This document shows positions 20,666 through 45,578 of a stretch of DNA of 64,000 nucleotides, one piece after another. The notes under the pieces are model-generated. The model was given only the letters and a program-made list of their open reading frames with translations, was not told the origin of the DNA and made no database searches. Source of the DNA: Fusarium oxysporum f. sp. lycopersici 4287. Lineage: Eukaryota; Ascomycota; Sordariomycetes; Hypocreales; Nectriaceae. The position numbers were made by a program, and so were the translations under genes. Within the stretch, counting starts at the first letter, position 1; each line of letters opens with the position of its first letter. Location: assembly GCF_000149955.1 (NCBI RefSeq), contig NC_030998.1:880699-944698 (forward strand), read 5' to 3'.

Positions 20666-22457
20666 CTATGATCTCCGCTTGACCTCCAATTGGACTCCCG
20701 GATCGGCGAACAGCTCAAAGCCAAATGGCATCAGCTTCGGTTTATATCCCTCAGCTAGCCGCACATCATAGTCTAGTAAGATGGTAGCAATAGCTGTCTT
20801 CACCTCGGCGATAGCAAAAAATCGCCCTGGGCAAATAGGTTTACCAATACCAAACACGAAATGATCCTCACTCGTGGAAGTAGCCGAGCTAGCATAGATC
20901 CACTTCCCACCCTGCGCACGAAGCTTCACATAGCGGTATGCATCGAAGGTGTCTGGGTTATCATATACCTCGGGGTTCCGGAGCTGCGACATGTAGATTG
21001 AGATAGCTGTCCCTTTGGGTAGGTACTGGCCGTTAGGTAGGGTGACCGGCGATAGGACCTGACGGTCGAGATTGACTATAATATGTTAATGCGTTGATCT
21101 ATAATGCTGGGGCGGGCGTCTTATCGACCTACCTATAACTGCAGAGTTCAATCTCTGTGTCTCCTTGATGACGCTATCGAGCAAGCGCATATTGGTCAGC
21201 GCAGCAGGAGACCATCCATGCTCGGCAACCACGGCTTCCACCTCCTCTCGGAGGGGAGCAACCAGGTCGTGGGCGCATATCTCAATGATCGTCTGCTTCA
21301 ATAGCTCCGAGGTAGTCACCACAGCAGCCATAGACATTCCAAGCTGGGCGGCGACAGGATCATAGCTCTTACCGCCCGCAATCTCGCCAAACCAGCTAAT
21401 GGAATCGTCGTGCTCTTTGTCTTCGGCCGCCCTCTTAGCGAGGTTCTTGTGCAAGACTTCGCGGGCGCGCTGGACTTCTGCTCTGCAACTCTTGCAAGCC
21501 GGGAGGAACCATTGTACAATAGGTCTCAGCAATCGCGGCCATGCTCGCAACGCGCGAGCCGCAAGGAACACGGTCATACCGTAGTTAGTACTGACCTGCT
21601 GCCATGTCTCGTCGCGCGACAGCTCCTCGCCAACAAATACCGACGCGGACATCCGGCTGATAAGGCTGACACCATCCTTGGCCCAGTCGACTGCTTTCCA
21701 ATCTAGCTTGGCCATTAGTTGATGCGCACGGATCACAGGACGGGTAGATGCTGAATATATGCCACACGTACCGTCACTTTGTTCGGGCCAAGCTGCCAGT
21801 AAGTCTTTTCGCACATTATTGTGTAGCTTGCTAACATCTAGAAAGCCTCGAGTCAGCATGATTACATCAATGCGAAGGGAAATGGTCGGGCTCACGAGGG
21901 TTTTGAACGAGCTTCTTCTTGATAACGTTGGCCAAAAGTTTAGACGGGTCCGATATGGCTGCCGTGCCATCAAATCCAGGATAACCTGCAAAGAAATCCT
22001 ATACAAGCAGTTCAGTCAATGTTCAATGGAGCGGCCTAGAAGGCAAGCGTCCGTACCTTGGACACCAGCGGTTGGTGATCAAGATGGGGACCATGGCGTC
22101 TCATCCACTCGAAATGGTCGGCAGGGAGGACTATTCTATCTCCCAGGAGTGTGATCATGCGGAAAGGCTTATTAAACTGGTTTCTTTTTGTCAGCACTCC
22201 TTTTCTCCATTAACCATGGAAGAAGAGCTTTCGCGCACCTTGGCAAACCCCTGTTTGATGAGGCCATCAGCATTAGTGATAAAGGCCATATGAGCCTTGC
22301 TCAAGAACCAGTCGTTAGGATATTTGTTGATAACAGGGATACTGTCTTTCGGCGCGATCAGCATCAGAAGCACGAATGCGACGACGGCGACAAGCACAGC
22401 TCCTCCCAAAGGATACTGTCCCGCAAGTAGCGGGGTGATGTATTTGCTGAGATCCAT
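20666..22457 (-). CDS. Cytochrome P450 A of the cluster (ent-kaurene-oxidase-like class)
   Basis: Model on the minus strand: exons 22239-22457, 22057-22176, 21896-21998, 21772-21837, 21133-21702 and 20666-21075; all phases close, giving 495 residues. An N-terminal membrane anchor (LGGAVLVAVVAFVLLMLI) precedes SIPVINKYPND. The K-helix ETQR lies in VIKETQRLNS, and the haem block is FGIGKPICPGRFF with ligand Cys441. The ...FGxGKxxCPGR form and overall layout resemble fungal P450s of terpenoid pathways such as ent-kaurene oxidase. It should sit in the ER and hydroxylate or oxidise a pathway intermediate; the substrate is inferred from the neighbouring terpene synthase. A 79-bp intron lies in the 5' leader. 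The gene is intact. Confidence 0.92.
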
Positions 22458-22460
22458 TGC

Positions 22461-22539
22461 CTGCAGGATCATGAAGAGTTTTAGCAAGTCGATATGATTA
22501 TGAGAATTCCTCCGTCAAGGGAGATTTGTGACTACTCAC
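22461..22539 (-). other. 5' leader intron of P450 A
   Basis: Minus strand: a GTGAGT donor at 22539 and a CTGCAG acceptor ending at 22461, with a TGCTAAAAC branch-like sequence. The acceptor is three bases before the chosen ATG at 22457. Splicing would remove an upstream in-frame ATG, which supports the downstream start. Confidence 0.6.
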
Positions 22540-23258: not shown

Positions 23259-26200
23259 CTATCCCAGAAACTCAGCAAACTGCATAAATTCGTGATCATT
23301 CTTCATCGCATCCAGTTCCTCAGGTAGAGTCCCCAGCAGCAACTCGACACCGCCATCCTTTCTCATCGGCAAAATGAAGAGACTCCTGAACGCTTTATTC
23401 AGCCAATCCATCTGAACCCTCACTGCCTCGGGCGCTTCGAAAATATCACCACCGAAAGGCCCAATATCGCTAGCTTGGAAGAGCATCATGTTATTGAAGA
23501 GCGAGTGTGGGCCGTCCTGGATGCCCTGGCCTAGGAACGCCGTCGTATGGTTTCCTGGGCTGTTATCTTGAATTGTATGTAGTAGACTGAAGGCATCGTG
23601 GACAAGCTCTTGATCGACTCGAGTACGCGCTTCGCGGCAGATTTGGGCAATTTTGTAAAGGGATGTCTGAGAAGAGCAGAGCTCCGAGATGGACATGTGC
23701 TGCCGGTTCATGATGACACAGTTGGCCATGTATGTTGGCGGGAGGTGCGAACTGAAGTAGGGCCGGACGTCAGTGGGCATCTCGATGATGGACATGTCAT
23801 CAGGGGAGGAGTCCTCGTCACGTCGACGGGCCCGGACGGCGGCGCGCCAGAAGAAGGCTTGCAACACATCGCCGAGAGATAGCGACCCCGACTCCTTGCT
23901 AAGACTTTGACTTTCCGGATCCGCAGCTTCGGCAAGCTCGACACTCTTCTGGAGTCTCTCAAGCTTCTCGGCCGAGATGACGAAGGTCGACGCCGCCAAC
24001 GTTCGACCATCCGCCCGCGGCGCGGGCGGCCAATGCTCACAGTTGGGGAGGCGAGGCGGCTTAGGCAGATGGCGAGACAAACGGGCCCTCTTAATGTTGG
24101 GCTCAGTGACATGTCCGTTGACCGCGGCTGCCTCTGTCATGTCTGTGTCTTCCTCTTTCTCCTGCTGCTTGCGCTTCAGCGCCGGATCGGCATATGGCAA
24201 GAAACCCCAAACTCTTGGGTCGACCTCAGACGCCGGCTTCGCGAACCCCTCCAGCTCATACAAGATAGATAGCATGTCACGATTGAGACTCTCTGGGTGC
24301 AGCCACTCGGAAGTCGCAGACTGATCGCCTTGGACGAACCGGCAGCATTCTGCCCATACCGTCAGCGCGATCAACATGCCAATGCCATCAAACGCATGAT
24401 GATGAACGTTAAAGGCCAGCACGCAGCCGCCCTCGACGAAATTGGCCTGTACGTTGAGCACATCCGTGGGCAGGTCGGGAAAAGAGGGACACGTAGTCAG
24501 GAGCTCGTCAGGGTAAGCCGAGGTCAAGAATCCAGAGGCGCGCTGCTCAGCGTAGGATGGCACGAGGGACGAGAGGTCGCGGAAGCGCAATTGTCTTGGC
24601 TCGTCGGAGGGAGAGGTACCCAAGGCCATTGAGGGCAGTGGAGGCAGACTGATGCGAACATCTCCCTTCTTGTATCCAATCTCGTGCTCCGAACAGGGTA
24701 TCACTCTACCCGCGAGAGCCGGCACAATCTCCATGGCGCGAACCAGACCTCGCTGGAGCACTTTGTACGCCTGCTCGAACGAGACGCCTGGACAGAGGGG
24801 AATGAAAACATTAATCCCCTCATACATATTTCCGCCGAAGAGGTCCATTGGGCCCAGCTTGGAGGATAGAAGAGCCTTGTGTCGGTTCATCAGTGCTCTG
24901 ATCTTGGCTTCCTGTGCATCCTGTTGCTGCTGCTCGGTCGACGGCGAGGTAATAGTGCCATTTGCTGTCGTGGCTCTACGCTCGGCAGCCAATCGCACGA
25001 CAGTGGCGGTAATCGCCTTAACTGTCGGCCCAGCATAGAAGTTTCTTGGTAGAAATATGCCTCCCAAGTCTGTAACCGCCGCTACCGCCTTAGTAGCCTT
25101 GAACACAAGCAGAGAGTCGAACCCAAGAGTAAACAGATTAGCATCCACTGGAGCGTCTTTGACCGCAGGCACGATCGAAGCCAGTATATGCCGAACCGCG
25201 CGGGCGGTCGAGTCCAAGGATGCTGTGTCGATTGTCAGCAGCCCAAGCGCCGCAACTTCGGCGTCGCTGTCATCCTCCCCACGCGACTGGTAGAAACGCT
25301 CGATGTAGTCGGCGTACAGCGCCATGGTAGCCCGACGTTTGATAGTGCGCTTGTCGGTACGGATGAATGGCTTCCCTGCTTCAGAAAAGGCGATAAAATC
25401 TCGGTGCAGCTGGTCCTTGTGCAGAGAGAGGGAGTTAGCCCTTTCGACCACGGCCCAGATGCTGCTAAAGAGCGCTTCAGCATCATCACCGTCCCTTTTG
25501 ATGGTTGGGTCTTTCAGCTCGATAAGGAGGCCGGCTTGTGGCTTGCCCGATCCGATCTGTGAGATAAGTTAGCATATCAATCAGCATTATCGATCGGCTA
25601 GTTGCCTGCGGGTTGTCAAACGTCTGAAGGGTCTCTGGACTTACCATCAGACAGCCATCAACAGCCGGGTGGGATGTGACGAGGGCCTCCGTATCGAGGG
25701 GCGAGATCTTGTATCCATTCGAAAGCACCACAACGTCATCACTGCGGCCGTGAGACGCCCATAGACCCGGCTTAGTTGGGTGCTGAACATACAGATCCTT
25801 AAAGTTGAAACTGTTCACATCTTGAAAGGTATGAAAGAGACCTTGAAAGAACTCCGCGTGCTCGTTGCGATGGATCCACTGTTCGTAAAGACCGGGCTCA
25901 ACCATCTTAAACTCGAAACCGGACCAAGGGTGAAAGGCAAACCAGTGCCAATCCTGTCTGTCTACCCACAGGTTGCCGATAAACAAACCTTCCGACGTGC
26001 CGGTCAGGTTCAGAACACGAACAAACTCGTTCACTTTGGAGCCTAAAACATTGCTCACGGGTCCTGGAAAGTAATCATATCTGTTAGCTTACTGACGGAA
26101 ACGGAAAGCCTTGACACAAGGTGATTTGTCGTCGTATCTCAGACATAAAGTACTTGTGCCTTACAACTGAAGTAGAGATCTGTACGTTGGGGACAAATGC

Positions 26201-27402
26201 CTTACCTCCCGAAGCGCAGATGAATTTTGACCTGCTTAGTTTTGGCAAGATGTCGGGGGCTTCGCCAAGCTCGTCAGTGAGCGAAGGAATCATGCTCCAG
26301 ATGTCGATCTTGATGTGGTTCGCCAGGGACGATATGAGTTCCAGATTGGGTATCACGTCCCGAGGCCCGAGGACGCAGTGTAGTCCAAACAGCGGCGATA
26401 TGACCACGTCCATCAAAATCCCCGCTCCCTTGAATACGTGGTCAGCACTAATTCAGACGTGATTGACTGGGACAGCTTCTTACATGGCTCAATGGGAATG
26501 TCGAGTATAGCGTGTCGCCATCATCCCACCCTTTCGCCCAGGGCTCCATACCGTCATGAGAGGGCAGCATCCGGACAGCGTCCACAGTACCAATCAGCCC
26601 GTGTGTCCACGAGATGGGCTTCGAAAGGCCGGTTGAGCCCGATGTATGGAGGATGCAGAACGTGTCGTTTATCGCATCTTCCCAGCGCTTGGTGTAAGGA
26701 AACGGCTCCACATTTTCCAGCTCGCTCTCATCCTCAGGAAGAAGCTCATCCAGCTTGGGCAGCTCCATGACATGCATGGGGCGTTGCTGTAAAAAGTCAT
26801 TCACGAGCTGTGTTGGCCTCTCACCAGCGGGGTTGACCCAGATGTTACAATTTGCCGCCTCGAGGACGGCTAGAGCGCCCTCGGTGCTATTCTTTGGAGA
26901 GAGGAACAAGCCCTGTAGGAATATGTTAGACAAACAGAGTGAAGCTCTGGGAGACACATTCAATGTGGGGAGAAACGAACAGCGCAATTGGCTTTGATAC
27001 AGGCGAATGTCAACAGGATCTGTCGGAGATCATCTAGATGCATGGGTATTGTGTCGTCAGTCAAATGGCTCGAATACACGGGCTCAGAGCCGCCGAGATG
27101 GCGGTACAAGCCCCTAACGATCCCAGGGCGCTTCGCTTTTAGGAGAAAAACTTACGAGGTCCGATATAACCCACGGCGCGGATCTCCGACGTCACTCCTA
27201 GCTCCCGCTGAAGTAGCCAGGCCGTCTTGTCGACCGCTTTCGTAAAGGCACGAGCAGATACATGGCGGAAGCCCTGCGAAAGGTCCGAGGACCTGGCCCA
27301 AGAGTAAATGATGCGATCAGGCTCAGCAGAGGCGAGGTCGTCCAAAATCTGGGGAATTAATCTGTTCCCACAGTTTGCCGGCGTTCCTTTACCGACAGCC
27401 AT
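23259..27402 (-). CDS. NRPS-like synthetase: adenylation - thiolation - BAHD acyltransferase
   Basis: Model on the minus strand: exons 27156-27402, 26981-27033, 26484-26912, 26206-26428, 25645-26063 and 23259-25556; all phases close, 1222 residues. Adenylation domain (~1-535): phosphate-binding loop ILHTSGSTGLSKP (~186-198), NLTGTSEG and GRSDDVVVLSNGYK. Carrier domain: LGFDSL with phosphopantetheine Ser605. C-terminal BAHD-type transferase (~660-1222): catalytic HHHAFDG around residues 842-848. There is no condensation, reductase or thioesterase domain, so the carrier-bound acyl group should pass to an alcohol or amine acceptor, making an ester or amide. Starts at the ATG at 27402. The same A-T-transferase order forms the C-terminal half of the isocyanide synthase CrmA as I recall it. 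Acyl substrate unknown; a neighbouring isocyanide synthase suggests an amino or isocyano acid. Confidence 0.93.
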
Positions 27403-28893: not shown

Positions 28894-30877
28894 TTAGCGC
28901 CTGATGAAGCGCAGGTCGTACGCTGGGGGTGTCAACATGAACTGTTCCGAGCCAGTAGAAGCCCTCACTTTCGCCTGCTCCTGGGTCTCGCCCGGCTCGG
29001 GCACGACCTCCCAGCGGAAGTTCATGATCATATGTGCCAGGAAGCACACCATTGTTACCTCTGCAAAGCGTTTGCCAATGCACTGACGCGAGCCGGACGA
29101 GTAGCCAATGAAGTCTTCGTATGAGACCTGCGTGGTTGGGAATGTTAGTACCTGATTCAAAAGTTTCTTTTCCGTCTGAACAGAGAGAGGAGAGGGGGAA
29201 TATAAACGTACGGTCACCTTCTTGTTGCCGTTCACATCTTCAGTCTCGCGAAGATGGCGTGTTGGGTTGTATGTTTGCGGGTCTTCCCACTTGAACGGGT
29301 TGACCCCAAACGCCGCCGTATCGAGGTGCACGCGCGTGCCCTTGGGAATGGCAACGGTGTGTTGGTGTACCTTGGCCTCAGATGGGTTGGCGGCGTCACC
29401 ATCCCACGTTGTGTAGCTAAGCGTGGTGTCGCGGGAGGCCACGCGCGTCATCTGCATGGCCAGATCGCGCATGCGGAGTGATTCAATAGTAGCTGCAAGG
29501 ACCAGAGGGAAGTTTGCCATTTCCTCGTAACCGAAATACTTCAGTGGCTTCGCGTCGCCCACGCTTTCGTCCTCGTCCAGGGGAAGAGTATCCACCTTAC
29601 TGACCTCGGCATATAGCTTTTCTTGCCAATCGGTGTTCCTGGCGAGCAGTGACAAGACCCAAGTCAGGGTATGAGAGGATGTTTCGTGACCGGTTCTGGG
29701 CGAGCCATGTGTTAGTCAGAGCATACACGATATAATGCAACGTCGAGTGCCTTATAAACTTACACCATGAAAGAGAAAATGTTGCCTTGGACTTCCTTGT
29801 CTGATAGCCCAACATTGGGCGCCACGTATCCCTTCTCGGCCTTCTCAGCCTTCTCCACGTCATTCTGGGAATCGACCAGCGCATCGATGAGGTTCCTGTA
29901 CTTTCTCGGCCGGCCTTGAACCTCGGTGTTATCTTTCATGTCCTCGATTCTTTGCCTTGTCTCAGCCTGCGCATTTTTAATGTGGGCGACGAGGGATCGC
30001 TGCGCCCAGCCAGCGCGACGTAAATACAATGAAGGACTCCATTCCAGGAACCACAGCGGTAGCATGGTCTGTACAAATGGCGAATCCCACACCACTTTCA
30101 GCGTCTCGGCGAATGGCATCAGGTCGCTTTTCGTGTTGCGTTGCGACTCCTCAGCCGGATCCCAGGGTATGTCAATGTCGAACCACGAGGCGCCGATGGC
30201 ACCTAGTGTCACTTTCAGCATGGTTGATTTCATGTCTCGTACAATGGGAGCTGTCTCCGAGTTGGCGGCTGCTGGATAGACGCCCTCTTCTCGGAGCAAA
30301 GCCCGCCACATATTGCACATGTTATGCCACCCGTTCTCCATAAGCTCGTTGTTAAACACTGCTTTAACGACGCGCTTGTGTCTTTCATGCTGGGCGCCGT
30401 TCTGTGTCGAGGCGAGCTGCAGTCCAAAGGTATTCAGCATGCGATAGCGGATCTTCTCAAGCGGCTTGAGAAAGATGTCGCCGTTGCGGCCAATTTCGCG
30501 AAAGATCTTTGGCGATCCAAAGAGGTAGGCGACCCCATTGGGAGACGACTGGTAACGGGATTCCCACGTCAGTACCTGTTCTTTCTAGAAAATCGGGAGG
30601 GGTCACTCACGGCCTCGGTAATGACGATCATGTCGGAGCGCGCATTGGCGAACTTCTTGAAAGGATCCTTGAGGGTAAACTTCTCCATGGGTACCAGGAC
30701 GGGGACGCGAGGATACCATGAGCGAATGACGGACTCGAAGATCATAATGCCGCTGTGTATTGCGGGATGGCCATTGCGGCGGACCTTGAGGACGGTGCGC
30801 GCATATGTCACGAGCCATTGGAGCAGGATGATGATAGGAAGGCCAATAGCGCCGATGAGCAGGAGAGGAGAGGCCAT
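28894..30877 (-). CDS. Cytochrome P450 B of the cluster
   Basis: Model on the minus strand: exons 30611-30877, 29764-30548, 29212-29695 and 28894-29127 (589 residues, phases close). An N-terminal anchor (MASPLLLIGAIGLPIIILL) targets the ER. The I-helix oxygen motif is TGHETSSHT, rebuilt across intron 2; the K-helix is ESLR; the haem block is IGYSSGSRQCIGKRF with ligand Cys528. The usual Phe at the start of the haem loop is Tyr, a minor variant. It is ~60-80 residues longer than a typical P450, with insertions around EKAEKAEKGYVAP and the VHQHTVAIP region. It lies between the synthetase and the regulator gene on the same strand, so a cluster oxidation step is inferred; the substrate is unknown. 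Confidence 0.92.
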
Positions 30878-31697: not shown

Positions 31698-33471
31698 TCA
31701 AGGAAAGTGACGAAATGACAAGGAGATAAGAAGTTTGTTAGACCTCTTCCGCAGAGCCTGGACCAGCCTCTCATGCCAAGGCCACGCGTTTGCGCTTATT
31801 GTTCCCTCAGCCATGGTGATCAGATTGCTGAGCCTTGTCACGCGGGACTTGATCAGGCTGATAACCAGTTCCATCTCGTCGTCGTCGTCGATCTGCCATG
31901 CACCCACCCCAGGCTGCAGCAACTGGGACGATCGGGACAGGGATGACACCTCCAGCCCCGCGCGTGATGGTGCTTCCATGGCGTGCATGTCTACGGCAGC
32001 AGCGGTGACGTTGGAACTGATCCTGTTTACGTCATCATCGCTTCTGCCGCAAACAAAACGCTCGACCGCCACCAGACTAGTTAATATGCGATCGCACATG
32101 GTAATTATCAGCATGACAAAGTCCGGGCGGGACCAGCAGGTGCTGCACTGGACAAGGGAGTCGCAACGAAGCAGTATCGTCTTCTGACGCTTCAGGATCG
32201 TTTGCTGGGTCATAAGAGGCGTTGTTGAATGGTATGTTGTCGCGCCTGTCCCTGACTCTGACCCTGACCACGATGGCCCAGACGAGTATGAAGAGCCGGC
32301 TGACGTAGAGTTGGGACTTGATGCCGCCGATGGGCCAGCGATGGGATCGCCCCAGACGAGCTGAGCCTGCATGGCCTCGTAGATGCTCACGGCTGTCATC
32401 ATGCAGCAGCAAGATGAAGATGAAGAGTTGGAGGTGGCAGCTGAGTCTGGTGGTGTTGAGGAATGAGCCGTACTAGGCCGAGCCTCATTTGTGACTCTAT
32501 TACTGCCTTGTGCACTGCTGGGCGCCACCGTTGTAGGGATGTGCGACTCATCCATCAGAAAATCCATCGGGTCAATCCCGTATTCAAAGAGGCTATCTGC
32601 CGACGACGATGAGTATACAGATGTGTGATTGCTCTGCTTGCTACTGTCTCCTCGAGCGGTCAACGCTTCGGCGGTAACACCAACACCGCTGCGGCCTGCC
32701 CGACTTTTCGCGGCAGCCGTAGGCGTGGGACCGGCCACCTTGCCAAAGAAGTCCGGATCGAACTGCGGAAAGACAGCCGGAATCTGTCCAAGGGAGTCCG
32801 GGAAGAGGGTGCTGAGAAAAAGTTGCTGTGCATCTTCTAGGCCCACGTCTGGCCCTGTTGCGATGCTGTTGGTGTTGTTGTCCCGAAGCGAGGGCTGCGA
32901 GGCTGTTACGACCCTTGATTGGTCCTTGGGGGATGATAAATGTGTTGATAATGGCGATGATTGTCTCATTGACTGCGCTCGAGACGAGCGTTTGTGTCTC
33001 CTCGCCTGGTTCGACTGCTTATGTTGGTTGACGACTGTGTTGTTGTTGTTGCCGTCATCGTCGTCATCCTCATCTTCGTTCCGTGACTTTGAACCACCAC
33101 TAGCGGCGCTGGATGTCCGCCGTTGAGGCCTCGAGATGACCAAGTACTCGCATTTCCGGTTCTTGGCAACGCATAGCATACAGCCGTTCTCACCGCTCAC
33201 GCACTTGGACTAAAGGCAACGCAAACGTCAAATCAGTCTCGTTGTCGTCAAGTGAAGATGGAAAAAGAGGTCTCTACGGTTTATCCATCGAGACTCCCCG
33301 CACTGGATAATGATGATGAATGTGAATGGCCGCGATGTGACCTACCTTTTGTCCGCGGCATCTCTCACAAGCAGTGCGCATGGACGTCCTGTCCTTGTCA
33401 AATGGCGGGGCAATCTCCACGCTGAGGAGTCGGTCTCCATCACCAAACGTTTGCCGTAGGGTACTAAACAT
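31698..33471 (-). CDS. AflR-like Zn(II)2Cys6 cluster regulator
   Basis: Model: exons 33346-33471 and 31698-33209 (545 residues). The intron splits the zinc cluster after GQK, and splicing restores cysteines at 35, 38, 45, 52, 55 and 62. The linker is low-complexity, with Asp/Glu- and Asn-rich runs encoded by GAT/GTT-type trinucleotide tracts and Ser-rich stretches. The C-terminal third has the AflR-type helical pattern with LLRCDSLVQCSTC and MLIITMCDRILTSL. Such proteins usually switch on the secondary-metabolite cluster that contains them. Its central position, next to the divergent terpene synthase gene, fits that role. A start at Met31 would also keep the whole zinc cluster. Confidence 0.9.
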
Positions 33472-34702: not shown

Positions 34703-35973
34703 ATGGTCAAATTCGATAGTGGTTCTGAGTCCGAGATGACGAACGGGGACGAGCTTCATATCAACGCCAAACATGAGATCAAACCCAGGATGGCCAACGG
34801 GAACGGGGTCCACAACGTCCCCGAACATGACCAATTTCAAGATCATGCCGAGATGGAGGTTCTCATGCTTCCCGACCTCTTTAGCTCACTCATGTCGGTC
34901 CCAGCCCGTGAGAACCCCAACTATGCCAGCGTCAAAGCCGAAGCTGACGAGTGGATTGCCTCGTAAGTTGCACCCCGCGCATCAAGCAGACCTCCTTGAA
35001 GAGTCAACCCTGACTGACTGTGTAAAGCGTGATCAACGCCGATGCCAAGTGGGCCAGCAGAAACAAACGGGTTGACTTCACCTATCTTGCAAGCATCTGG
35101 GCTCCCGACTGCAGCGCATTCGCCTTACGTACGTCAACCGATTGGAACTCGTGGGCCTTCCTGTTCGACGATCAGTTCGACGAAGGCCACCTGTCCAATG
35201 ATCTGGATGGCGCCGTGAATGAGATTGCCAGGACACGTGAGATCATGGAGGGTACTGCCCCGCGGTATACCGCCGACTCAGAACACCCTATTCGGTATGT
35301 GTTCCAGACATTGTGCGATCGCGTGAAGCAAAGCCCAGAAGGTTTCTACGCGGGAAAGCCATCGTCAGACCGCTTCTACAGGCGCTGGATGTGGGCACAC
35401 GAGCTCTACTGGGAGGGGCTGGTTGCGCAGGTTCGGACAAATGTGGAGGGTCGGTCCTTCACACGTGGTCCGGACGAATACCTGGCCATGCGCCGGGGCT
35501 CTCTCGGCGCCTATCCTGCGCTGGTCAACAATGAATGGGCCTATGGGATTGACTTGCCCGAGGAGGTAGCGGATCATCCTTTAGTGTTCGAGATCATGGT
35601 CATCATCAGCGACCAGATCCTGTTAGTCAACGACATTCTCTCCTACGAGAAGGACCTTCGCCTCGGGGTTGACCACAATATGGTCCGCCTGCTCAAGGCC
35701 AAGGGGCTCTCAACCCAGCAGGCCATCAACGAGGTCGGAGTTATGATCAACGACTGTTACAGACGCTATTACAGAGCACTATCGGAGCTCCCATGCTTCG
35801 GCGAGGAGGCCGACCGCGCGCTCCTCGGCTATCTCGAGGTCGAGAAGAACCATGCTCTCGGTAGCCTGCTCTGGAGCTACAAGACGGGCCGGTATTTTAA
35901 GAGTAAGGAGGATGGTGCTCGGGTCAGGAAAACGCGAGAGTTGCTTATACCAAAGAAGATGGCGGTGTTGTAA
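34703..35973 (+). CDS. Class I terpene synthase, probably a sesquiterpene cyclase
   Basis: Model: exons 34703-34962 and 35028-35973 (401 residues), 65-bp intron with GTAAGT donor and TGACTGAC branch region. After a ~70-residue polar N-terminal extension comes the single alpha-helical class I domain. The aspartate-rich metal motif is DDQFD (134-138). The second metal motif is NDILSYEKD (288-296), where the last position is Asp instead of the usual Glu. A C-terminal TGRYF gives the Arg-Tyr pair. There is no class II DxDD motif and no prenyltransferase domain, so farnesyl diphosphate from primary metabolism is the likely substrate. Cytosolic. The product skeleton cannot be predicted. It is intact and centrally placed among three P450 genes. 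Confidence 0.93.
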
Positions 35974-36429: not shown

Positions 36430-39400
36430 TCAGCCTTCTATGTTCTGTAATGGCACATACCCAACCTCTTCCTCCTTGCCTCTGCGTCCCGTCATCTCCC
36501 TCACCCAGCCGACGATTCCCCTTCCCCATATCCACCTCTCCGCCTTGGGCTCCCTGCCGCCGTTCTTCGCCACCTCGTTCATCCAAACAGGCCTTGTCCA
36601 GGAGTTGAGCATCAGACTGCTGACCACCACCGTCACACTGCTGAACGCCATCGCAAGACTCGCCATTATAGGATGCACGCTAAGCCCGAACGGAAGGAAG
36701 AAGCCCATGGCAATCGGGAGGCCGATAGCGTTATAGATGCATGCCCATCCGAGGTTTATCTTGATACGGCGGAAGATGGTGCGCGTAAGCGCCAGCGAAG
36801 CAGGTATTATCATAAGCTCTGTCGGCCTCATAAGCACCATATCCGCCGCCTCCATCGCGACATCTGTTCCGCTTGCCATAGCAATGCCCACGTCCGCCGT
36901 TACAAGTGCCGGGGAGTCGTTAATGCCGTCGCCAATCATGCCGACAACCTCGCCACGGTCCTGGATCTCTTGTACGATAGCCTGCTTCTGATCGGGGCTA
37001 ACACCGGCGTAAACATTGTTGACATCGATACCCACGGCAGAGGCGACGGCGAGTGCGGTAGACCGTTGGTCGCCGGTCACTATGGCGGTCTTTATGCCCA
37101 TACGGTGCAGGACCGAGATAGTCGCTGCAGCATCCTCTTTGATTGTGTCAGACAGGCACACATGGCCCGAATAAAGCCCGTCAATGGCAACGAAGATGTT
37201 GGTGGTTCCAGCGCTGCGGGGATTGCTCTTGGCCTGCGATGTGCCCTCGCCAACCGACATGTTAAGCTTCTCGGCGGCCTCTACAGCATCCTCGGGGACA
37301 TCGATACCACTATCCTTCAAGAATATGAGGTTGCCAACCAGTACCATGTATCGTGACCGGTTCGCGATAGCTGGCTCGACAGTCACACTGACACCCTTCC
37401 CCACAACCGCTTTGAAGTCTCCGACGCTGCCATCAATGGTTTCTTCGGGCGCCATACCTAGCTCGTTCTTTGCAGCGCCCAGGATAGCCTTGCCCACAGG
37501 ATGTTCACTCCCCATCTCTGCTAGACCAACGATGGACCACCAAAGTCGTTTACTGACCTCGCTTCTTGTCCATTGCGGGACGAGACCTATGCTGGCCACG
37601 CTCATCTTACCATAAGTTATGGTGCCAGTTTTATCGAGGACAACCTGCGTGACCTTGGTTATACGTTCCAGGACAGCACCGCCCTTTATCAGAATTCCGT
37701 TTTCTGCACCGACTCCGGTGCCAACCATCACGGCCGTGGGCGTAGCTAGTCCAAGAGCACACGGACAAGCAAAGACAATGACGGAGATACACAACTTAAC
37801 GCAGACTACGACCTTGCCGCCGCTATTATCTTCGAGGAAGATCTCCGGAGGGTGGGATAAAACATGACATAGGACCATCCATACAAGGAACGTACCAAGA
37901 CCGAGGATAAGAATCATGGGAACAAAGTAGCCGGCTATTGTATCAACAAGTTGCTGAATAGGGGCGCGAGCGGTTTGTGCGTCTTGCACTAGCTTGACAA
38001 TCTGACTTAGCTGGGTATCATGGCCAGCTCGAGTAACACGGACGTCGACCCGCCCATCACCGTTAACAGTGCCGGCGACGATACTATCACCCATGTACTT
38101 CTGAGCAGGCATAGCTTCTCCAGTAACCATACTTTCGTCAACAAATGTAGTGCCTCGAACCAGAATGCCATCTGCTGGAATTTTGTCACCGGGCCGGATG
38201 ACCACAATATCGTCAACCTCAAGCAGCTCTGTTGGGATGGCCTTTTCCTCCCAAGCAGAGACGCCAGGTTCATGAGTCCGAGGTGTCTTGGGCGTTGGGG
38301 GCTCGTCAGATGATTTTGCCCAGCTCTCTGCTGCCTTTTCCACAGCGATCGGGTCAGCATAGATGGTAGCTTTGGACGGAGCTAGTGACATAAGACGAGA
38401 CAGCGCCTTAGAAGTCTGGCCTTTGGCCCGGTTCTCCAGCCACCGAGACAGTGTGATGAATGTGATGAGCATGGTGCATGTGTCGAAGATCGTGGAAGGT
38501 TTAGAGTGCGGCTCAAGAAGGACGGAGATCAGCATGGAGAAGACGCTAAAGAGGAAGGCACATGATGTGCCGAGAACGACGAGAACATCCATTGTTGGCG
38601 ATCTATGTTTAAGAGACTTATACCCAGAGATATAGAATCGCTTGCCAATGCCGAATTGAACAGGCAATGTGAGAACGAGACATACAATGTCACCCAGGAA
38701 TAGACCAGGTATGAGTTCGAAACGTCCAATGTCTATCACTGAGAAGGCCATAGGAATAATCATGCCGATGAGGAGAACGGGGATCGCGAAGGCAAGTGAC
38801 GTCCTGAACGCTGTCCGCCACTCGGTAATCTCGCGCGTTTTGGCCAGCGACTCAAGCTGCGCGTTGTTATCCTCGCCACTTGCAACGAGGGCATTCAAGC
38901 CCTGCACCTCTATAGCCTCAACAATGCCACGAAGTCCTATAGTCCTGGGCTGGTAGATGACTGTCAGGCGGTCCGTACTGAGGCTGAGAGATGCGGATCG
39001 GATGCCCTGGACTGCAATGAGGCCTTCCTCCAGAAGCTGGGCAGTAGTCGCATCTTTGCAGCCGAAGACCTTGAACTGAGCGCTTGTCGTATCTCCTCCC
39101 TGATGGATCGAGTCGCGCTGCGTCGATAAAATAGTAACATCAAACCCGCGATCGTCGATAATCTCGGCTATCTTCTCCGGCGAAAGCTTCGTCTCGTCAT
39201 AAGTGATAACGGCTCGTTCCGCCAAAAGGCTAATGTTGAACTTGAGCACGCCGGCCACGCCACTGAAGCCAGCTTCAACGGCGGACGTGCAGGCGCCACA
39301 TGTCATGCCCTCTATGGCGAAAGTGGTCGTCGCAGTTGTCGTTGCAGACTCAGCTTCACTCCCAATCGCAGTGCTCTGGTCGGAGAAGTGGTTGTTCAAT

Positions 39401-39778
39401 CGAGTAGTCGCGGGGTTGGGACGATCGGTCGAGAGAACCTCAGCATCAAACCCACGGTCCTCGATGATCTCCTGTATCTTCTCGGCAGGTATGATGTCTG
39501 GGTCATGCGTGACAACGGCGCGCTCCATTACGAGGCTGACGGAGACTGTTCCGACGCCGTCAACGCCTTTGAAGCCGGATTCAACTGCCGACGTGCAAGA
39601 ACCGCATCTGTTGAGGTTACAGAGTTAGCTTTAGAGAACGAAATGAACGAAGGTAAGAGTTGGCGACGCACGTCATGCCGCCGATCTGCAGCGTGGTTGT
39701 TGCCAGATGTGCGCTCGTGGGCGCTGGAAGCCTGCTGGCACTGGCATTTCTGTCATCGCCATCTTCCGGCAGACGCAT
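36430..39778 (-). CDS. Heavy-metal (copper) transporting P1B-type ATPase (Ccc2-like)
   Basis: Model: exons 39672-39778 and 36430-39607 (1094 residues); the 64-bp intron lies within the first metal-binding motif. Two N-terminal heavy-metal domains carry GMTCGSC (Cys37, Cys40) and GMTCGAC (Cys139, Cys142), with a third degenerate domain lacking the CxxC. Then come eight membrane helices, the phosphatase loop (TGEAMP), the membrane CPC ion site (Cys650-Pro-Cys652), the phosphorylation site DKTGT (Asp694), SEHPVG, and GDGINDSPAL. These residues define a Cu(I) pump. Yeast Ccc2 loads copper in the Golgi; CrpA-type pumps export it. The gene is intact, embedded in the cluster and divergent from the isocyanide synthase, which suggests a pathway-specific copper supply or resistance role. 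Confidence 0.95.
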
Positions 39779-40682
39779 ATAGGTTTGTCCCATCGCAGCG
39801 ACAGCGACAACGACAGCAAGCAGTTCTCAGGGCTTTTGGTCGTGGAGTTGGTGTAGTGGAGGGCCTCGCAAGCGCGCCAGGCCACTAGTGTACCAGCTGG
39901 GACGCTAAATGGATCTTCGGGATGCCGTCAGATCACGGTAACTAGGATGAGTACGGGGGTGTCGTTTGCTGAGAGGTGCACTGAGAAGACCGGCTTCTTC
40001 AGGCGGAGAGTAAGCGATGAGGGGATGCGATTGTGAGATTGTAAGCCAGAAGAGAAAGGAGAAGGAGAAAGAGGAGAAATCCTGCTTCTGGGTGACACAA
40101 CAGAAGGTCGCAGGCTGTCCGATAATTGAGATTGGGGGCGGGCGCTTAGGTACCTTAGTCTAAAGAGTACCCCTGTCTCGGTACTGGGGTCCTGTCGCGA
40201 TCCACTTCCATCTCACCTCAGACGCTGCAAGGTAGTTAACGGCAGCGGACCTGAAACGGCAATGTCCCGTCCCGTTGACCCTCTTTGCTTTTTGCGGCGG
40301 CCTGGCTTCCCTAGCTTCCGCCCTACCAAGCCACACGTTCCCTTCCTAGTGCAGTGCCCCCGGCATGGAATTAGCATATGCTACCAAATGACAATGACGG
40401 GCTTTGCCTCACTTGGGTTGGAGTGAGGCAGACATTATCTTCCTTCTTCTGGCATTCTCCCGGATAAAATAAGGCTGAGCATGTCCGCCAATCTCCATTG
40501 TGAAGAACCAAGGCCTCTTACATTGGATCATCTGTCCCAATTGGATAAGTGTTGTACGTGACACTATATGTACAGCTTGTTCTAGATTGCGACTTTTACG
40601 ACACCTCCGCTTCACCCTTATTGCATGTTTATCGTCTATCATTTCATCTTCTGCCATACCATTCATATGTGCTTTGGTCGCC
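39779..40682. promoter_or_regulatory. Shared divergent promoter: copper ATPase / isocyanide synthase
   Basis: 904 bases between the ATG of the ATPase (minus strand) and that of the isocyanide synthase (plus strand). No supported gene. This is a natural site for coordinated, possibly copper-responsive control; I see no exact Mac1-type element. Confidence 0.6.
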
Positions 40683-42112
40683 ATGGCCATCGATATTGAT
40701 CATCAGAACCCCTCCGACGTCTTGAAACTGAAGACACCGGCTGTCACCATAGCTGGATCAGACGTCTCGTTCGACGACACCATGTCGACGAGATCCTCCC
40801 GCTCCAGTGTCCCGAGCGAGATGACGGGCCCTCCCGCCGCAGATGACAAAACGGAAGACTCTGAAGAGACCAAAGTCTCCGAGACTTCCAACAGAATTTT
40901 GGACGTCATTCTAGAATACTCTCTTCACAAGTTCGACAGCACCGAGGAACTGCATAGTGCCGGCAGGCCTAAGTTCCTAGCCGTCGTCTCACGCTTTGTC
41001 AGAGCACGGCAAAAGGTGGTCATGTGTCTACCGGCATTCCCGTTCAAGTCAGCAAATAAGGTCGAAAAGGTTCTGGGTACCCTCCCAGATAAGGCTGAAG
41101 AGTTGGCACTTGCTAGACTAAACTCCATATGTGTCACCATTGGCCAATTCTATGAGCCTGGCGCAGAGCTGACTGTCATCTCAGACGGCCTGGTTTACAA
41201 TGGTTCGTTCATCCTCTGCATTCCTCACTCGAAACAAGGTGACAACTCTCACGGCTACTGGCACATCACTGACACTTCTTCTTGAATCGTCATCTAGACT
41301 TGCTAGGAATTTCTGACCAGGAGACCTGGCGTTACGGGTCGGCGCTACGGGCCATGGCCGAGCGCAAGGCCTTCTCTCATCTCTCATTCTCCCGCCTACA
41401 GGATTTGGTCGCAGTGAAGGGCCTGCCCAATGACCTTAATGAGCTCACGTACGTTGCAAACGCAACTAACTTCCGCCGGACCCTGTTCAACAAGTATGGC
41501 CGGGACGGCGATCTTGACATTGACCATGAAATCGCCACAAATCCGGACACGCTCGGGACGTACAAGGGGTACTGCCGCTTCCTCAAGTCAGATCTGCAGC
41601 ACATTTTCGGCCCAGCTAAGAGCAGTGCCAAGTACAGGAAGGATGTCAAGTACCTCGCCAAGCAAATGCTGATCCGGGGATACGTAAGTTTCAAGTTCAC
41701 TACTTCAGCCAGTCATTTCAATGCCTAGTCGAGTTCCCATAGCTAACAGAATCTCTCTTGTGATTAGGCTTTTGCGGGAGCCGTCAAAGCGCGCTTCCCG
41801 AACTATTTACGTCTCAGTATCCACCAGTCTACTGGAGAGCATAAGATTTCCATCAGCCTGCTCAACACCAAAAGCGGCTTTACGACGCCGTGGCATTGCA
41901 GCGTTGTATTGATGGCAGACGGTGAATGGCTTAGTGGCCTTACGGTCGACTTCAAAGCCGATCGGTTGCTGGAGCTCGTCGAGGAGGATGGCCGGCCGAG
42001 CTACTTCAGGGAGGTCCTCCGTCAGCGACCATACCTGATGGAGAACGCGAAGCCGCGTATAGTTATTCAACAGGAGCCACAGGCCCATAGGCCCAGGATA
42101 CGCGCATCCTAG
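40683..42112 (+). CDS. Isocyanide synthase (PvcA/Dit1 family, PF05141)
   Basis: Model: exons 40683-41202, 41298-41683 and 41768-42112 (416 residues, phases close); the second donor is GTAAGT. A Ser/Asp-rich N-terminus (1-70) precedes the family domain. Its landmarks are CLPAFPFKSANKVEKVLGTLPDK cut at the Pro-Phe-rich start, then the Tyr-Glu-Pro-Gly stretch, VISDGLVYNDLLGISD (SDG at 167-169), and a late segment with KISISLL and TPWHCSVV. Bacterial PvcA and IsnA turn the amino group of an amino acid into an isonitrile using ribulose-5-phosphate; yeast Dit1 belongs to the same family. No oxygenase (PvcB-like) or NRPS domain is fused. Here it would make an isocyano acid from an unknown amino acid. 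Divergent from the copper ATPase. Confidence 0.93.
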
Positions 42113-43585
42113 GTCCACCGAGCGCCTGTGCAGAACGAGTTGTGGTTGAGGTTATAGCTTTGACTGCTGTCATAGCCTGGAGTTGCAGGTGTACTAGGAC
42201 CGCTCACCCTCACTTGTTCAGGACTAACTCCGACTTGAGGAGGCCTTGACGTGAATGGTTTAAGTATTTACGAACTAAGATAAGAACGTACAATTTTATG
42301 GACTTTTAGTAACTTATACAAGAATGAAACGAGATACCTACCCACTTCCGGACGTAGAAGGACACTGAGACGCACCGCCAAATCTCATGTGACATGCGAA
42401 CTGTGGTGCTTATACAGCATGCTGATTCTTCTTGACATCTGTAACGGTAGCAAGTAGGAGACACTGGTCTAAGAACCTTGGCTACCTTGCAACCTTTGAA
42501 TGCCAGACTTGGGTGTCCAAAGCCTGGCAGCTCATGTTGGTGCAGAAGGGCGAGTGATTTTGACCTGGTCGACCCCTACACTTGGAGCCCGCATAGGAGC
42601 CATTGACTATCGTGGCTGAGGGCTTGTATCACTACACAGAGCTTAGACTATCTAAAGCTTTAGCAAATGTCTGGTGTTCTGGAGCAACATGAGACCTTCG
42701 CCATTAAGACTATTCTGAGAATGAAAATGCCCTGATCCAGGCCAGCTTGAGGTCCAACGTCGCCAAACGCTATATCCCCAGCATTTTGGGTAGTCCTCAT
42801 CGAGCACGCTTTTTCCAGTGCTCTGAAGATAAGGGGGCATATTTGGGTGCTGTCGAGAAAATGGATCTGCGGTCTCCTGGCAGTTATCTTGACTATTTAG
42901 GGAATATCTAAATTCAACAGCCATCTCAGCCCCTTTTCAACATCCTAGGTATTGCTAGGAGCAGAGCTGTCATTCCTGACAATTGTAACTTGCCGAATGT
43001 AGTTGATTGCATTCAGGAAGCCGCTGAAATTCCGGCTAAGCTGCTCACGTTGGATCAGTGAAACCGGACGTCCGATATTGTTGGTGATAAGTTTATATGG
43101 GAGGAGTTTATCGAGCTCGTTGAGGACGTCACTGTAACGTTGTCGGCTTATCTTCATGAATACCGTGCAAGCCCTCTGTTGGCTCTACTACAAGCGACGA
43201 ACTTGGCGTCAGGTCTGATTCCTTGCACTCTAATGCTTGATTTTGTTCAAAGTTTAACAGTTTTGATAATAGATATTCTAATGTGAAGGTTCATGTATCT
43301 TTGTCACCTTCTAGCTCTAACTCTTTATAGTTCTTATATACAGTCCTAAACTGTTGCCTGCTGGTACCGTAGAAAATCGCTCCATTGCTTAATCGGGAGC
43401 TTGCCCCTGGACACCAGAGCTAAAGAAATTCCGCCGGCCCACGAGACAACACCATGAGGGGGGCAGGGCAATATGGACACAGTGTCGCCAGGGAGTTCAT
43501 AGTTTGCATAAACTTGCTGGAAGAGATTGCTGTAGCCCTCTTAGATATGGCAAGGCAAGTTGGCGTTTTGATAGTCTTCCGTAAA
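42113..43585. other. 1.5-kb convergent stretch, no supported gene
   Basis: Between the stops of the isocyanide synthase and P450 C. Two minus-strand frames (42652-42924, 42945-43157) have no signature and no shared splice signals; I do not call them genes. AT-rich near 43250-43350. Confidence 0.5.
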
Positions 43586-45578
43586 TCACGCGATCTTGAT
43601 GCGAGTCGAAATGTGTCCTTTCTTCGTCTGCAACACGACCAGGTCATGGTCATACGTGAGGTCCTCAATCGTAGTGTCGAAAAGTTCGGCTTTCGGGATA
43701 ATTCGAAACGCCATCAGGGCGGCCATGATATAGATCTCGCACAGCGCAAGACTGTAAGACACAACTGTCAGTATGAAAATTCCGACTTGGGCTTACCCCG
43801 TCCTAAACACCGGGAAACAATGATAAAACTCACCTCTCGCCAACGCAAACCCTAGATCCCTTCGAAAACGAGATGAGGAATTTTTGCAGCGTGTAATCAG
43901 GCTTGCCGTCGGGCAACAACCACCGCTCAGGGTTGAATGCGTCGGGGTCGGGAAACAGCCGCGTGTCCCAGTGGTTGATCATGGCCGTCATGCTTACAGG
44001 TGTGCCTCGGGGGATCACAAATTGCGTCTTGCCATCTTGACTCTTATAGAAGAGTTCCTCCTCACGGGCAATGCGAGCTGATCGAGCGGCCGCCCCAGGC
44101 TGGTGCCGCAGAGACTCCTGGACGAGGGCCCAGAGGTATGGTCTCTGCTCGAGCTGTGCCCATTTGAGATTATTGGGATCAATGCCTTCCAGGTCTTTCA
44201 TCAGACGAGCGTAGATTTTGGGTTGATGAAGGAGGTGAAACGTCATGACAGTGAGGATAGCCTGTATCGAGTCAGTTAGGTAAATTCGACCAGTCCACCA
44301 TGGTGAGAGAACTGACCGCAGTGGTTTCGGTTCCAGCAACAAGGAAGACAAACCCCTCACCCGAGAGACGATACATGCTCTTCTCTTCCTCGGGCAGGAC
44401 ATTGGAGTTCAGAATCTCGTTAAAGACACGGCCGCCATCGGGATTTGCCAGGGCAGTTTTGATGTACGCTGGGATAACATGATTCATCTGGTGCATTATC
44501 CTCTTGACATCCTCGCCCATATAGTCCGCGAACATGGGGAGGATATCAGCCAGCCGTCTGGCCAGCCCATTGTGGCGCACTGTTCGCCGTCAATTAGCAT
44601 AACTGTCTAGTCGAAAGGGGTTCCACGATCAAGACTATGTTTCTGGGCCTCGCAGGGGCTATTGGTATAGCACAAAGCAGCCCAGAAGATAGATCTGTAC
44701 GCGCGAGACACAACCAAAACAAAGCGGTAGAAAGGGCTCTCTAAAGACGTACTCATGTAAGTGGTTGTCAAGAAGGACGAGGTCCAAGTTCCAAAGTTGG
44801 GTTCCCAGCCCTCCTGCTCGATGAAGCCCATAGGCTCTCCAAATGCGTATTGGGAGAAGACATCGGCGGTATAGCAATTGAAGGCGCCTTTAATTTCAAA
44901 GGCCTCCTTGCCGGTCCAGCGGAGCATTTTCTCAATAGCGAGCTTGGCGTAGTTGTACACTTCGTCCTCGAGCTTGAGCACCTGTCCGCGTGAGAAGAAA
45001 CGTGCATGAGCAGCCCTACGCTTGCGATGTAGCTCGTGCGGCCCAGCCGTGCCAGTTGCCTGTGAGACTGGGCCAGCGCCTGCTATTTTGAGGTGGTGCT
45101 GCCATTTATCGCGGACTAAGAGAAATGTAAGCAGAAGAATTTTATTGAGCCGAGAAGGCTACAAGCGAGGAAGGTAATTGTATAGACATACTTCGGCCTG
45201 GCTTTCCTGTGTAGATCTCATCGGCAAAGAACGGGTCGCTGCAATGAAGTTCATCAGGGCTGACGCGCACGATAGGACCTTCAATGACTATTAGTTACTT
45301 CAAATTTATCAGGAAGTGTTCATCAAGTACTCGCCATACTGCTCATGCATTTTCTCTATCCTCCTGCCATACCGACCCATGAGGATCCAGTCATAGTAGG
45401 CCTCATACACGTAAGATGCGGCGGCAATTTTTGGACCAGGAAACTTGGAGAGTGGGTGGAGAGAGGAAACGTTGTAAAGTGCGAGCGCGACACGATAACC
45501 AAGCCAAAGACCAGTGAGGCCAAAGAGCGCCGAGGGACTCAGCAAACGCTCGAGAGCGATTGAATTGAAGTTGTCCAT
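43586..45578 (-). CDS. Cytochrome P450 C of the cluster (trichodiene-oxygenase-like class)
   Basis: Model on the minus strand: exons 45335-45578, 45192-45278, 44753-45115, 44317-44579, 43834-44261 and 43586-43751 (516 residues). Intron 1 is of the rare GC-AG type (donor GCGAGT), needed to join HEQYG to PIVRVSPDELH; intron 3 is long (173 bp). An N-terminal anchor precedes the Pro-rich hinge LSKFPGPK. Other landmarks are the I-helix VAGTETTA, K-helix ESLR, FNPERW, and haem block FSKGSRVCVGE with ligand Cys458. Overall it looks like the fungal P450s that oxidise sesquiterpenes or act in similar clusters. It is intact and sits beyond the isocyanide synthase, so it could act on the terpene or on the isocyanide; which one is unknown. 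Confidence 0.92.

What the first reader, a model, noticed from the sequence alone, without database searches (positions are those of the whole stretch)
20666..45578. Sesquiterpene cluster that also carries the two halves of a CrmA-like isocyanide pathway as separate genes
Seen: a stand-alone isocyanide synthase (40683-42112) and a stand-alone adenylation-thiolation-BAHD transferase (23259-27402), with a class I terpene synthase, three P450s, a copper ATPase and an AflR-like regulator between or beside them. Known (from memory): Aspergillus CrmA is one protein with an isocyanide synthase domain followed by A-T-transferase, and it makes isocyano-acyl esters. Inference: the pathway esterifies an isocyano acid, or a free amino acid as in aculene-type proline esters, onto an oxygenated sesquiterpenol. 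I know of no described product joining a fungal isocyano acid to a sesquiterpene.
Basis: partly seen in the sequence, partly recalled or inferred. Interest (0 to 1): 0.9.

Follow-up and report, generated by a model that had tools for sequence, protein, structure and literature searches.

The report
Fusarium isocyanide and guaiane gene cluster
A plant-associated Fusarium fungus carries side by side the genes to make a guaiane terpene and the genes to make and attach a reactive isocyanide acid; the cluster family is already catalogued, but what it makes when both halves work together is unknown.

Summary
The locus (Fusarium oxysporum) holds open genes for a single-domain isocyanide synthase (ICS), a stand-alone adenylation-thiolation-BAHD protein (ATB), a class I terpene synthase, three P450s, a Cu-ATPase and a Zn2Cys6 regulator, at the stated coordinates. 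ICS and ATB match the two parts of CrmA (58% and 49%). Split pairs on one contig occur in several other genera. Among the proteins compared, all but one fused CrmA-type protein form one clade nested among split ones, so the split is the likelier ancestral state. The terpene synthase is 95% identical to a deposited guaia-6,10(14)-diene synthase (PDB 9wf7).

The cluster is in print: as Fusarium-specific 'GCF 8' (Nickles et al. 2023) and as the guaia-6,10(14)-diene cluster with a 'pyoverdine' gene. My searches showed no paper joining the two descriptions or naming a joint product.

Best reading (about 50%): an oxygenated guaiane acylated by an isocyano acid, probably from valine. The same genome has a second split pair set among crm-type neighbour genes, which suggests a division of labour. 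Against: some species keep the ICS gene without the terpene synthase, ICS/ATB relatives outside Fusarium show no close terpene synthase, and no copper-response site was found.

The parts
20666..22472 (-). cytochrome P450 'a' (523 aa model)
   Evidence: gene model; PF00067 E=2.7e-34
23259..27402 (-). stand-alone adenylation-thiolation-BAHD protein (ATB), six exons, 1222 aa; homologue of the C-terminal part of CrmA
   Evidence: model; domains; relatives; active-site columns
28894..30877 (-). cytochrome P450 'b' (589 aa after the I-helix exon boundary was corrected)
31698..33471 (-). Zn2Cys6 transcription factor; by gene order the likely counterpart of FGSG_08182
   Evidence: PF00172; FGSG_08182 described in PMC5148886 passages; the two proteins were not compared
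34703..35973 (+). class I terpene synthase, orthologue of the Fusarium (-)-guaia-6,10(14)-diene synthase
   Evidence: PDB 9wf7 over residues 1-401, 380 of 401 identical
36430..39778 (-). Cu-transporting P1B ATPase, second copy (71% identical copy on contig C1); membership of the cluster uncertain
39779..40682 (.). 0.9 kb divergent region between the Cu-ATPase and the isocyanide synthase
   Evidence: gene models; no CuRE-type match
40683..42112 (+). single-domain isocyanide synthase (PF05141), three exons, 416 aa; homologue of the N-terminal part of CrmA
43586..45578 (-). cytochrome P450 'c' (509 aa model)
   Evidence: gene model; PF00067 E=1e-37

Best explanation
This is the F. oxysporum copy of the Fusarium cluster family described as GCF 8 and, separately, as the guaia-6,10(14)-diene (STC5) cluster. 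Proposed pathway: the terpene synthase makes guaia-6,10(14)-diene (orthology shown; activity of this copy not shown). P450s hydroxylate it (inferred). The isocyanide synthase turns an amino acid, probably L-valine as in CrmA, into an isocyano acid (inferred from homology). ATB adenylates that acid, holds it as a thioester on its carrier domain, and its BAHD domain moves it to a hydroxyl group of the guaiane (inferred from domains, conserved catalytic residues and gene position). The result would be an isocyanoacyl guaiane ester, found partly as its hydrated N-formyl form. Splitting CrmA's work over two proteins is most likely the ancestral state, not a broken CrmA. The second split pair of the genome, on C11, would keep the ordinary crm job.
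For: Both parts are CrmA-related: ICS 58% and ATB 49% to the A. fumigatus protein. ICS and ATB identities rise and fall together over 28 pairs (Spearman 0.79; 0 of 999 permutations). Fused proteins: 37 of 38 in one clade in the ATB tree (support 1.0); 36 of 37 in one clade that also holds two split rows in the ICS tree (0.91). The A core is closer to A. fumigatus CrmA (62%) than the BAHD part (44%); for the C11 pair 69% and 59%. The C11 pair has an alpha/beta-hydrolase and an alcohol acetyltransferase gene beside it, the kinds of gene that accompany crmA in Cochliobolus and its like (PMC9381783 passages), whereas the window pair has a terpene synthase and P450s: different acceptors in one genome would explain two pairs. 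BAHD His and Asp in 120 of 120 rows. Terpene synthase: 9wf7 over its whole length. The order TPS-TF-P450-ATB agrees with FGSG_08181-08184 of F. graminearum. Terpene synthase and 'pyoverdine' gene trees are congruent in Fusarium (PMC6836718 section 16).
Against: Four F. graminearum-complex species kept only the 'pyoverdine' gene of the cluster. Close ICS/ATB relatives in Epichloe, Nemania, Microdochium, Cercophora and a Xylariaceae sp. come without any non-Fusarium terpene synthase above 56%; the same Cercophora isolate has one at 40%, on another contig. The function of CrmA's own transferase domain is unproven: its discoverers ascribe mannitol acylation to a likely unknown acyltransferase (PMC9381783 passages). 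The only STC5 product named in the passages seen is the hydrocarbon. 9wf7 is labelled inactive, and activity of this copy is untested. The lower BAHD identity may be faster evolution only, and the carrier (39% against 36%) and A C-terminal parts (65% against 61%) of the window protein are no farther from CrmA than those of the C11 protein.
Confidence: 0.5

Rival explanations
1. Two pathways share one place: the terpene genes make an oxygenated guaiane, while ICS and ATB separately make an isocyanoacyl ester of mannitol or another acceptor.
For: 'Pyoverdine' gene kept without the terpene synthase in four FGSC species; ICS/ATB relatives outside Fusarium without a close terpene synthase; Nickles et al. 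leave open that such clusters make separate products.
Against: ATB lies between two P450 genes, and the order TPS-TF-P450-ATB agrees with F. graminearum numbering. Terpene synthase and 'pyoverdine' gene trees are congruent within Fusarium. A crm-like role seems already filled by the C11 pair.
Confidence: 0.27
2. ATB loads a free amino acid or other carboxylic acid onto the guaiane, AneB-like in effect, and the ICS product has its own fate.
For: AneB and ThmA esterify sesquiterpenols with free amino acids (PMC10720950 passages); the 'pyoverdine' gene is kept alone in some species.
Against: ATB's nearest relatives are partners of ICS genes and CrmA itself, with co-divergence; its acyltransferase is a BAHD, not a condensation domain.
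Confidence: 0.1
3. The isocyanide is joined to a terpene-derived partner by carbon-carbon bond formation, as in the Strecker-like fumivaline route, and ATB only activates or shuttles the acid.
For: CrmA's valine isocyanide is joined to an ergot alkaloid that way in A. fumigatus (PMC9381783 passages).
Against: No imine-bearing partner is suggested by the cluster's genes (inference); the BAHD His and Asp are present.
Confidence: 0.08
4. The cluster is a partly decayed relic with no joint product in this genome.
For: Independent losses of the cluster across Fusarium; the deposited 9wf7 protein is labelled inactive.
Against: All eight genes have open spliced models; listed F. oxysporum ICS rows are 97-100% identical to the window copy, and two F. 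oxysporum ATB rows 96-97% (uncorrected model).
Confidence: 0.05

Closest known systems
Fusarium-specific ICS gene cluster family GCF 8 (Nickles et al. 2023, PMC10153163)
   Same: Single-domain ICS next to an NRPS-like gene with CrmA-type domains and a terpene synthase, in Fusarium; named closest relative of crm; fusion of separate genes already proposed there.
   Different: No difference found in the features read. The supplementary membership table could not be read, so identity of this locus with GCF 8 is by features, not by accession.
Guaia-6,10(14)-diene (STC5) cluster of Fusarium, including FGSG_08181-08187
   Same: Terpene synthase (380 of 401 residues identical to 9wf7), 'pyoverdine' gene, regulator and P450s.
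   Different: In what I read (section 16 of one paper, passages of the others) the 'pyoverdine' gene is not called an isocyanide synthase and ATB is not discussed. In F. culmorum, F. pseudograminearum, F. kuroshium and F. sarcochroum the tags of ICS and ATB differ by 1 or 2, while here the Cu-ATPase, terpene synthase, regulator and P450b lie between them.
CrmA of Aspergillus fumigatus
   Same: Same four kinds of domain; 58% (ICS part) and 49% (A-T-transferase part) identity.
   Different: Two separate genes here, with a terpene synthase in the cluster; the A. fumigatus crm cluster has an alcohol acetyltransferase, a siderochrome-iron transporter and a copper transporter instead.
AneB / ThmA single-module NRPS
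   Same: Would do the same job: ester of a sesquiterpenol with a carrier-bound acid.
   Different: A-T-C architecture with condensation domain; here A-T-BAHD.
Trichothecene 3-O-acetyltransferase
   Same: Best-scoring solved structure to the BAHD part of the 97%-identical orthologue P0121 (2rkv, E=1.6e-10); acts on a sesquiterpenoid alcohol (recalled).
   Different: Uses acetyl-CoA (recalled), not a fused carrier domain; weak similarity only.

Membership tests
GCF 8 ICS cluster family | single-domain ICS backbone | tested here: met
   only PF05141 in a 416 aa protein
GCF 8 ICS cluster family | co-located NRPS-like gene with crm-type A, T and transferase domains | tested here: met
   A and transferase domains, carrier serine motif in the alignment, 49% to CrmA
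GCF 8 ICS cluster family | terpene synthase in the cluster, Fusarium genome | tested here: met
   PF19086; F. oxysporum matches at 100%
GCF 8 ICS cluster family | listed by its authors as a GCF 8 member | not testable with these tools
CrmA (ICS-NRPS-like hybrid) | ICS, A, T and transferase on one polypeptide | tested here: not met
   two genes about 13 kb apart, opposite strands
CrmA (ICS-NRPS-like hybrid) | belongs to the clade of fused proteins in gene trees | tested here: not met
   window clade separate, support 1.0 in both trees
CrmA-type copper-responsive clusters | copper-dependent expression | tested here: inconclusive
   no match to four Mac1/MacA-type patterns (motifs recalled) in six promoter regions; expression not testable
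AneB / ThmA | A-T-C with NRPS condensation domain | tested here: not met
   TRI-like_N and Transferase hits, no condensation domain hit
guaia-6,10(14)-diene synthase (STC5) | orthologous sequence with Asp-rich and NSE/DTE-type metal motifs | tested here: met
   9wf7 over 1-401; DDQFDE and NDILSYEKD present in both
guaia-6,10(14)-diene synthase (STC5) | makes guaia-6,10(14)-diene from farnesyl diphosphate | not testable with these tools
   enzyme assay needed; 9wf7 is labelled inactive
dit (Dit1/Dit2) | ICS of the dit clade with a Dit2 P450 | not tested
   no yeast Dit1 or Dit2 sequence was put in a tree; ICS is 58% to CrmA

The most novel reading that the evidence does not exclude
The locus makes isocyanoacyl (or N-formylaminoacyl) esters of oxygenated guaianes, a class of fungal hybrid metabolite of which my searches showed no report, by an ancestral two-protein form of the CrmA machinery whose BAHD domain has turned from a sugar alcohol to a terpenoid acceptor, while a second split pair on C11 keeps the crm role.
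Probability: 0.4. Interest if true: 0.75.

Novelty: already known. Interest (0 to 1): 0.43.

Why it matters
Two literatures describe the same Fusarium cluster without, in what I read, meeting. One sees an orphan isocyanide synthase cluster with a terpene synthase; the other sees a guaia-6,10(14)-diene cluster with a 'pyoverdine' gene. Joining them gives one testable product prediction with a defined carbon skeleton and mass. Split ICS/A-T-transferase pairs on one contig also occur outside Fusarium (lichen fungi, Colletotrichum, Oidiodendron, other Nectriaceae), and CrmA is most likely a later fusion, which makes the acceptor choice of this enzyme family an open and approachable question. The F. 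graminearum cluster is reported as expressed in cereal infection and its regulator as contributing to disease (PMC5148886 passages), so its product would matter to plant pathology.

Tried and rejected
Whole-window automatic gene prediction chained 20666-62375 into one false gene and was discarded; genes were modelled segment by segment. The first ATB model (1233 aa) had one wrong intron; it was the query and was corrected to 1222 aa, the length of two listed F. oxysporum orthologues (P0121, P0122). A first try at that correction used a wrong search word and gave no valid model. P450b was corrected. Copper-response sites were sought and not found; Ace1-like matches (7 in six regions, 71 in the window) are near the number expected from length (about 6), and two AflR-like half-strict matches were seen. 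No promoter word was convincingly shared by the cluster genes. P450s were compared with two BOT4-like fusion proteins and showed only weak, general P450 similarity. The idea that the split is a broken CrmA is disfavoured by the trees, which rest on capped lists: the best 120 of 822 ICS hits and the best 120 of 414 ATB hits, 29 of 158 ICS rows left out as near-identical and one short ATB row (P0229) dropped. A protein of F. langsethiae (P0139) has ATB first and ICS second, the reverse of CrmA; it was treated as adjacent genes merged by annotation and left out of the fused count. Linkage in other genomes was read from contig lengths and locus tags only, since no fungal DNA collection was on hand; 52 of 81 non-fused ATB rows could not be matched that way, which is not evidence of being unlinked.
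Full report
WHAT IS THERE. The window lies in a 61 Mb genome (G000:C13:880699-944698). Its isocyanide synthase is 100% identical to listed F. oxysporum proteins, and contig C11 has the same length (2,337,134) as the contig of FOXG_09770 of F. oxysporum f. sp. lycopersici 4287, so the genome is probably that strain. Eight genes fill 20666-45578: P450a, ATB, P450b and a Zn2Cys6 gene on the minus strand, the terpene synthase on the plus strand, the Cu-ATPase on the minus strand, the ICS on the plus strand and P450c on the minus strand. Pfam supports seven and NCBIfam the Cu-ATPase. Of 10 flanking proteins or exons tested by Pfam, two had no hit and eight had hits of general kinds (amino acid transporter, glycosyl hydrolase 76, zinc cluster, nucleoside-hydrolase-like, ubiquitin-like, mannosyltransferase, phospholipase D-like, NACHT-like); the other flanking models were not tested.

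RELATION TO CrmA. The ICS matches the N-terminal part of A. fumigatus CrmA (P0218) at 58% and ATB the rest at 49%. Trees were built from 130 ICS sequences plus an outgroup and from 120 ATB sequences. They rest on the best 120 of 822 ICS hits and the best 120 of 414 ATB hits plus the ICS parts of fused proteins; 29 of 158 ICS rows were left out as near-identical. Proteins over 1340 residues were taken as fused, except P0139. In the ICS tree, rooted on the ICS-TauD protein of contig C4 (its TauD tail confirmed), one split row branches first, then the window clade (26 leaves, support 1.0) separates from the remaining 103 (nodes 0.86 and 0.88). 36 of 37 fused proteins fall in one clade (0.91) that also holds two split rows. 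In the ATB tree, rooted at its midpoint, the 20-leaf window clade has support 1.0 and 37 of 38 fused proteins form one clade (1.0). The exception in both, a Lojkania protein, is a second fusion or an annotation merge. Several deep nodes have low support (0.0-0.5), so the order of the split clades is not settled. Under the outgroup rooting the split is ancestral. This extends the suggestion of Nickles et al. [quoted passage not shown]

SPLIT PAIRS ELSEWHERE. Of 81 non-fused ATB rows, 29 have the same longest-contig length as a listed ICS row. Two of these (P0124, P0189) share one whole chromosome with the same ICS row. In the 12 with tags visible for both genes the numbers differ by 1 in nine, and by 2, 5 and 6 in the others; for the rest only the contig is shown, some of megabase size. 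They include Xylographa, Gyalolechia, Polycauliona, Plenodomus, Colletotrichum, Oidiodendron, Teratosphaeria, Ilyonectria, Thelonectria and Niveomyces. ICS and ATB identities rise and fall together over 28 pairs (26 of the 29 linked rows, the window, and database proteins standing for C11; Spearman 0.79; 0 of 999 permutations reach it). This shows shared descent, not function.

A SECOND PAIR IN THE SAME GENOME. On C11 ATB2 and ICS2 stand head to head, start codons at 3755 and 4682 of L007. Beside them lie an alpha/beta-hydrolase (PF07859) and an alcohol acetyltransferase (PF07247). Won et al. describe just these two kinds of gene beside crmA in Cochliobolus, Leptosphaeria and Alternaria, where mannitol esters are made (PMC9381783 passages). 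So C11 looks like a split crm cluster, and the window pair like a terpene-partnered relative. The C4 gene is of the ICS-TauD type.

THE TERPENE SYNTHASE. PDB 9wf7, deposited as 'Inactive (1R,4R,5S)-(-)-guaia-6,10(14)-diene synthase' (organism not shown), aligns over residues 1-401 with 380 of 401 identical. Next is presilphiperfolan-8-beta-ol synthase (8h6q). DDQFDE and NDILSYEKD are present. Of 99 proteins found, the first 11 (77-98%) are all named Fusarium; the next is an unnamed protein at 56%. PMC10455296 (passages) counts 19 STC5 homologues above 78% in pathogenic Fusarium.

WHAT PRINT ALREADY SAYS. Nickles et al. (PMC10153163, preprint; [quoted passage not shown] whether the extra enzymes join in ICS chemistry is left undecided, and they speculate that some are true hybrids. 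PMC6836718 (section 16 read whole) describes the guaia-6,10(14)-diene cluster with terpene synthase and 'pyoverdine' genes, congruent gene trees, and four species that kept only the pyoverdine gene and flanks. That this gene is the ICS is my inference from the family name PF05141. PMC5148886 (passages) describes FGSG_08181, FGSG_08182 and three P450s as a cluster with expression reported in infection, FGSG_08182 contributing to disease; PMC7075021 (passages) repeats this. PMC3814326 (passage) lists FGSG_08181 as STC5. Reviews (passages) report that lowering Kmt6 in F. fujikuroi induced STC5 and led to guaia-6,10(14)-diene. Passages of PMC3694855, PMC5675463, PMC6480918 and PMC5974471 were also seen. 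The original chemical papers were not read. Searches for a joint product or follow-up (open-licence papers only) showed none in titles and opening lines of abstracts; the hits not named here were not opened.

HOW IT MOST LIKELY WORKS. Shown: gene content, homology, conserved catalytic positions, co-location and co-divergence. Inferred: guaiadiene formation by this copy, hydroxylation, isocyano acid from valine, loading on ATB and transfer to the terpenol. One quantitative hint: against A. fumigatus CrmA the adenylation core keeps 62%, the A4-A5 region 65% and the BAHD part 44%; for C11 69%, 79% and 59%. A similar acid with a changed acceptor would give this, but so would uneven rates; the carrier part (39 and 36%) and A C-terminal part (65 and 61%) show no such difference. 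Won et al. show that CrmA makes valine isocyanide and that mannitol esters depend on CrmA, but ascribe the acylation to a likely unknown acyltransferase, so even the model enzyme's transferase is unproven.

AGAINST A JOINT PATHWAY. The 'pyoverdine' gene persists without the terpene synthase in four FGSC species; an F. austroamericanum ICS is listed at 443 aa (P0037). Non-Fusarium members of the window clade (Epichloe, Nemania, Microdochium, Cercophora for ICS; Epichloe and a Xylariaceae sp. for ATB) have no close terpene synthase among the rows; the Cercophora isolate has one at 40% (P0321) on a different contig. Epichloe is nested among Fusarium in the ICS tree and groups with F. sarcochroum in the ATB tree, which suggests transfer of the pair. 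The Cu-ATPase is a second copy (71% to one on C1) beside the ICS. F. anthophilum tags (ICS 5432, ATB 5437) leave room for the four genes found between them here; in F. kuroshium ICS and ATB tags are consecutive and only two tags lie between ATB and the terpene synthase (15299, 15302), so there the Cu-ATPase is probably not in between. Its membership is uncertain. No CuRE-like site lies in six cluster promoter regions.

VERDICT. By its features the locus belongs to a catalogued, uncharacterised cluster family. The idea of an isocyanoacyl terpenoid ester remains open and is now sharper: the terpene is most likely a guaiane, and the genome's other split pair offers the natural control.

Noticed in passing
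L007 (contig C11, 1069000-1078900): A second split pair, ATB2 (FOXG_09770) and ICS2, head to head about 0.9 kb apart, with alpha/beta-hydrolase and alcohol acetyltransferase genes beside it: looks like a split crm cluster.
   Followed up: partly
L006 (contig C4, 4683500-4693400), 3105-5337 minus strand: An ICS followed by a TauD dioxygenase domain, near a FAD-binding monooxygenase-type gene and an MFS transporter.
   Followed up: partly
P0135, P0049 (Epichloe bromicola); P0045, P0046, P0137: Epichloe ICS and ATB group within or beside Fusarium sequences, and Xylariales relatives are about 77-80% identical: possible horizontal transfer of the pair without the terpene synthase.
   Followed up: partly
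database names: Several Fusarium ICS proteins are named 'ABC1 transport protein' or similar in public databases, a misleading label.
   Followed up: no
window 20000-46000: The cluster block has higher G+C (mostly 0.50-0.56 in 2 kb steps, one step 0.48 and one just under 0.50) than both flanks (0.44-0.50).
   Followed up: no
window 46549-62483: Right flank holds ubiquitin-like-domain and NACHT-like (NPHP3_N) matches of the kind seen in fungal NOD-like receptor regions.
   Followed up: no
P0139 (Fusarium langsethiae): Annotated as one protein with ATB first and ICS second, the reverse of CrmA; probably two adjacent genes merged by annotation, or an independent fusion.
   Followed up: no
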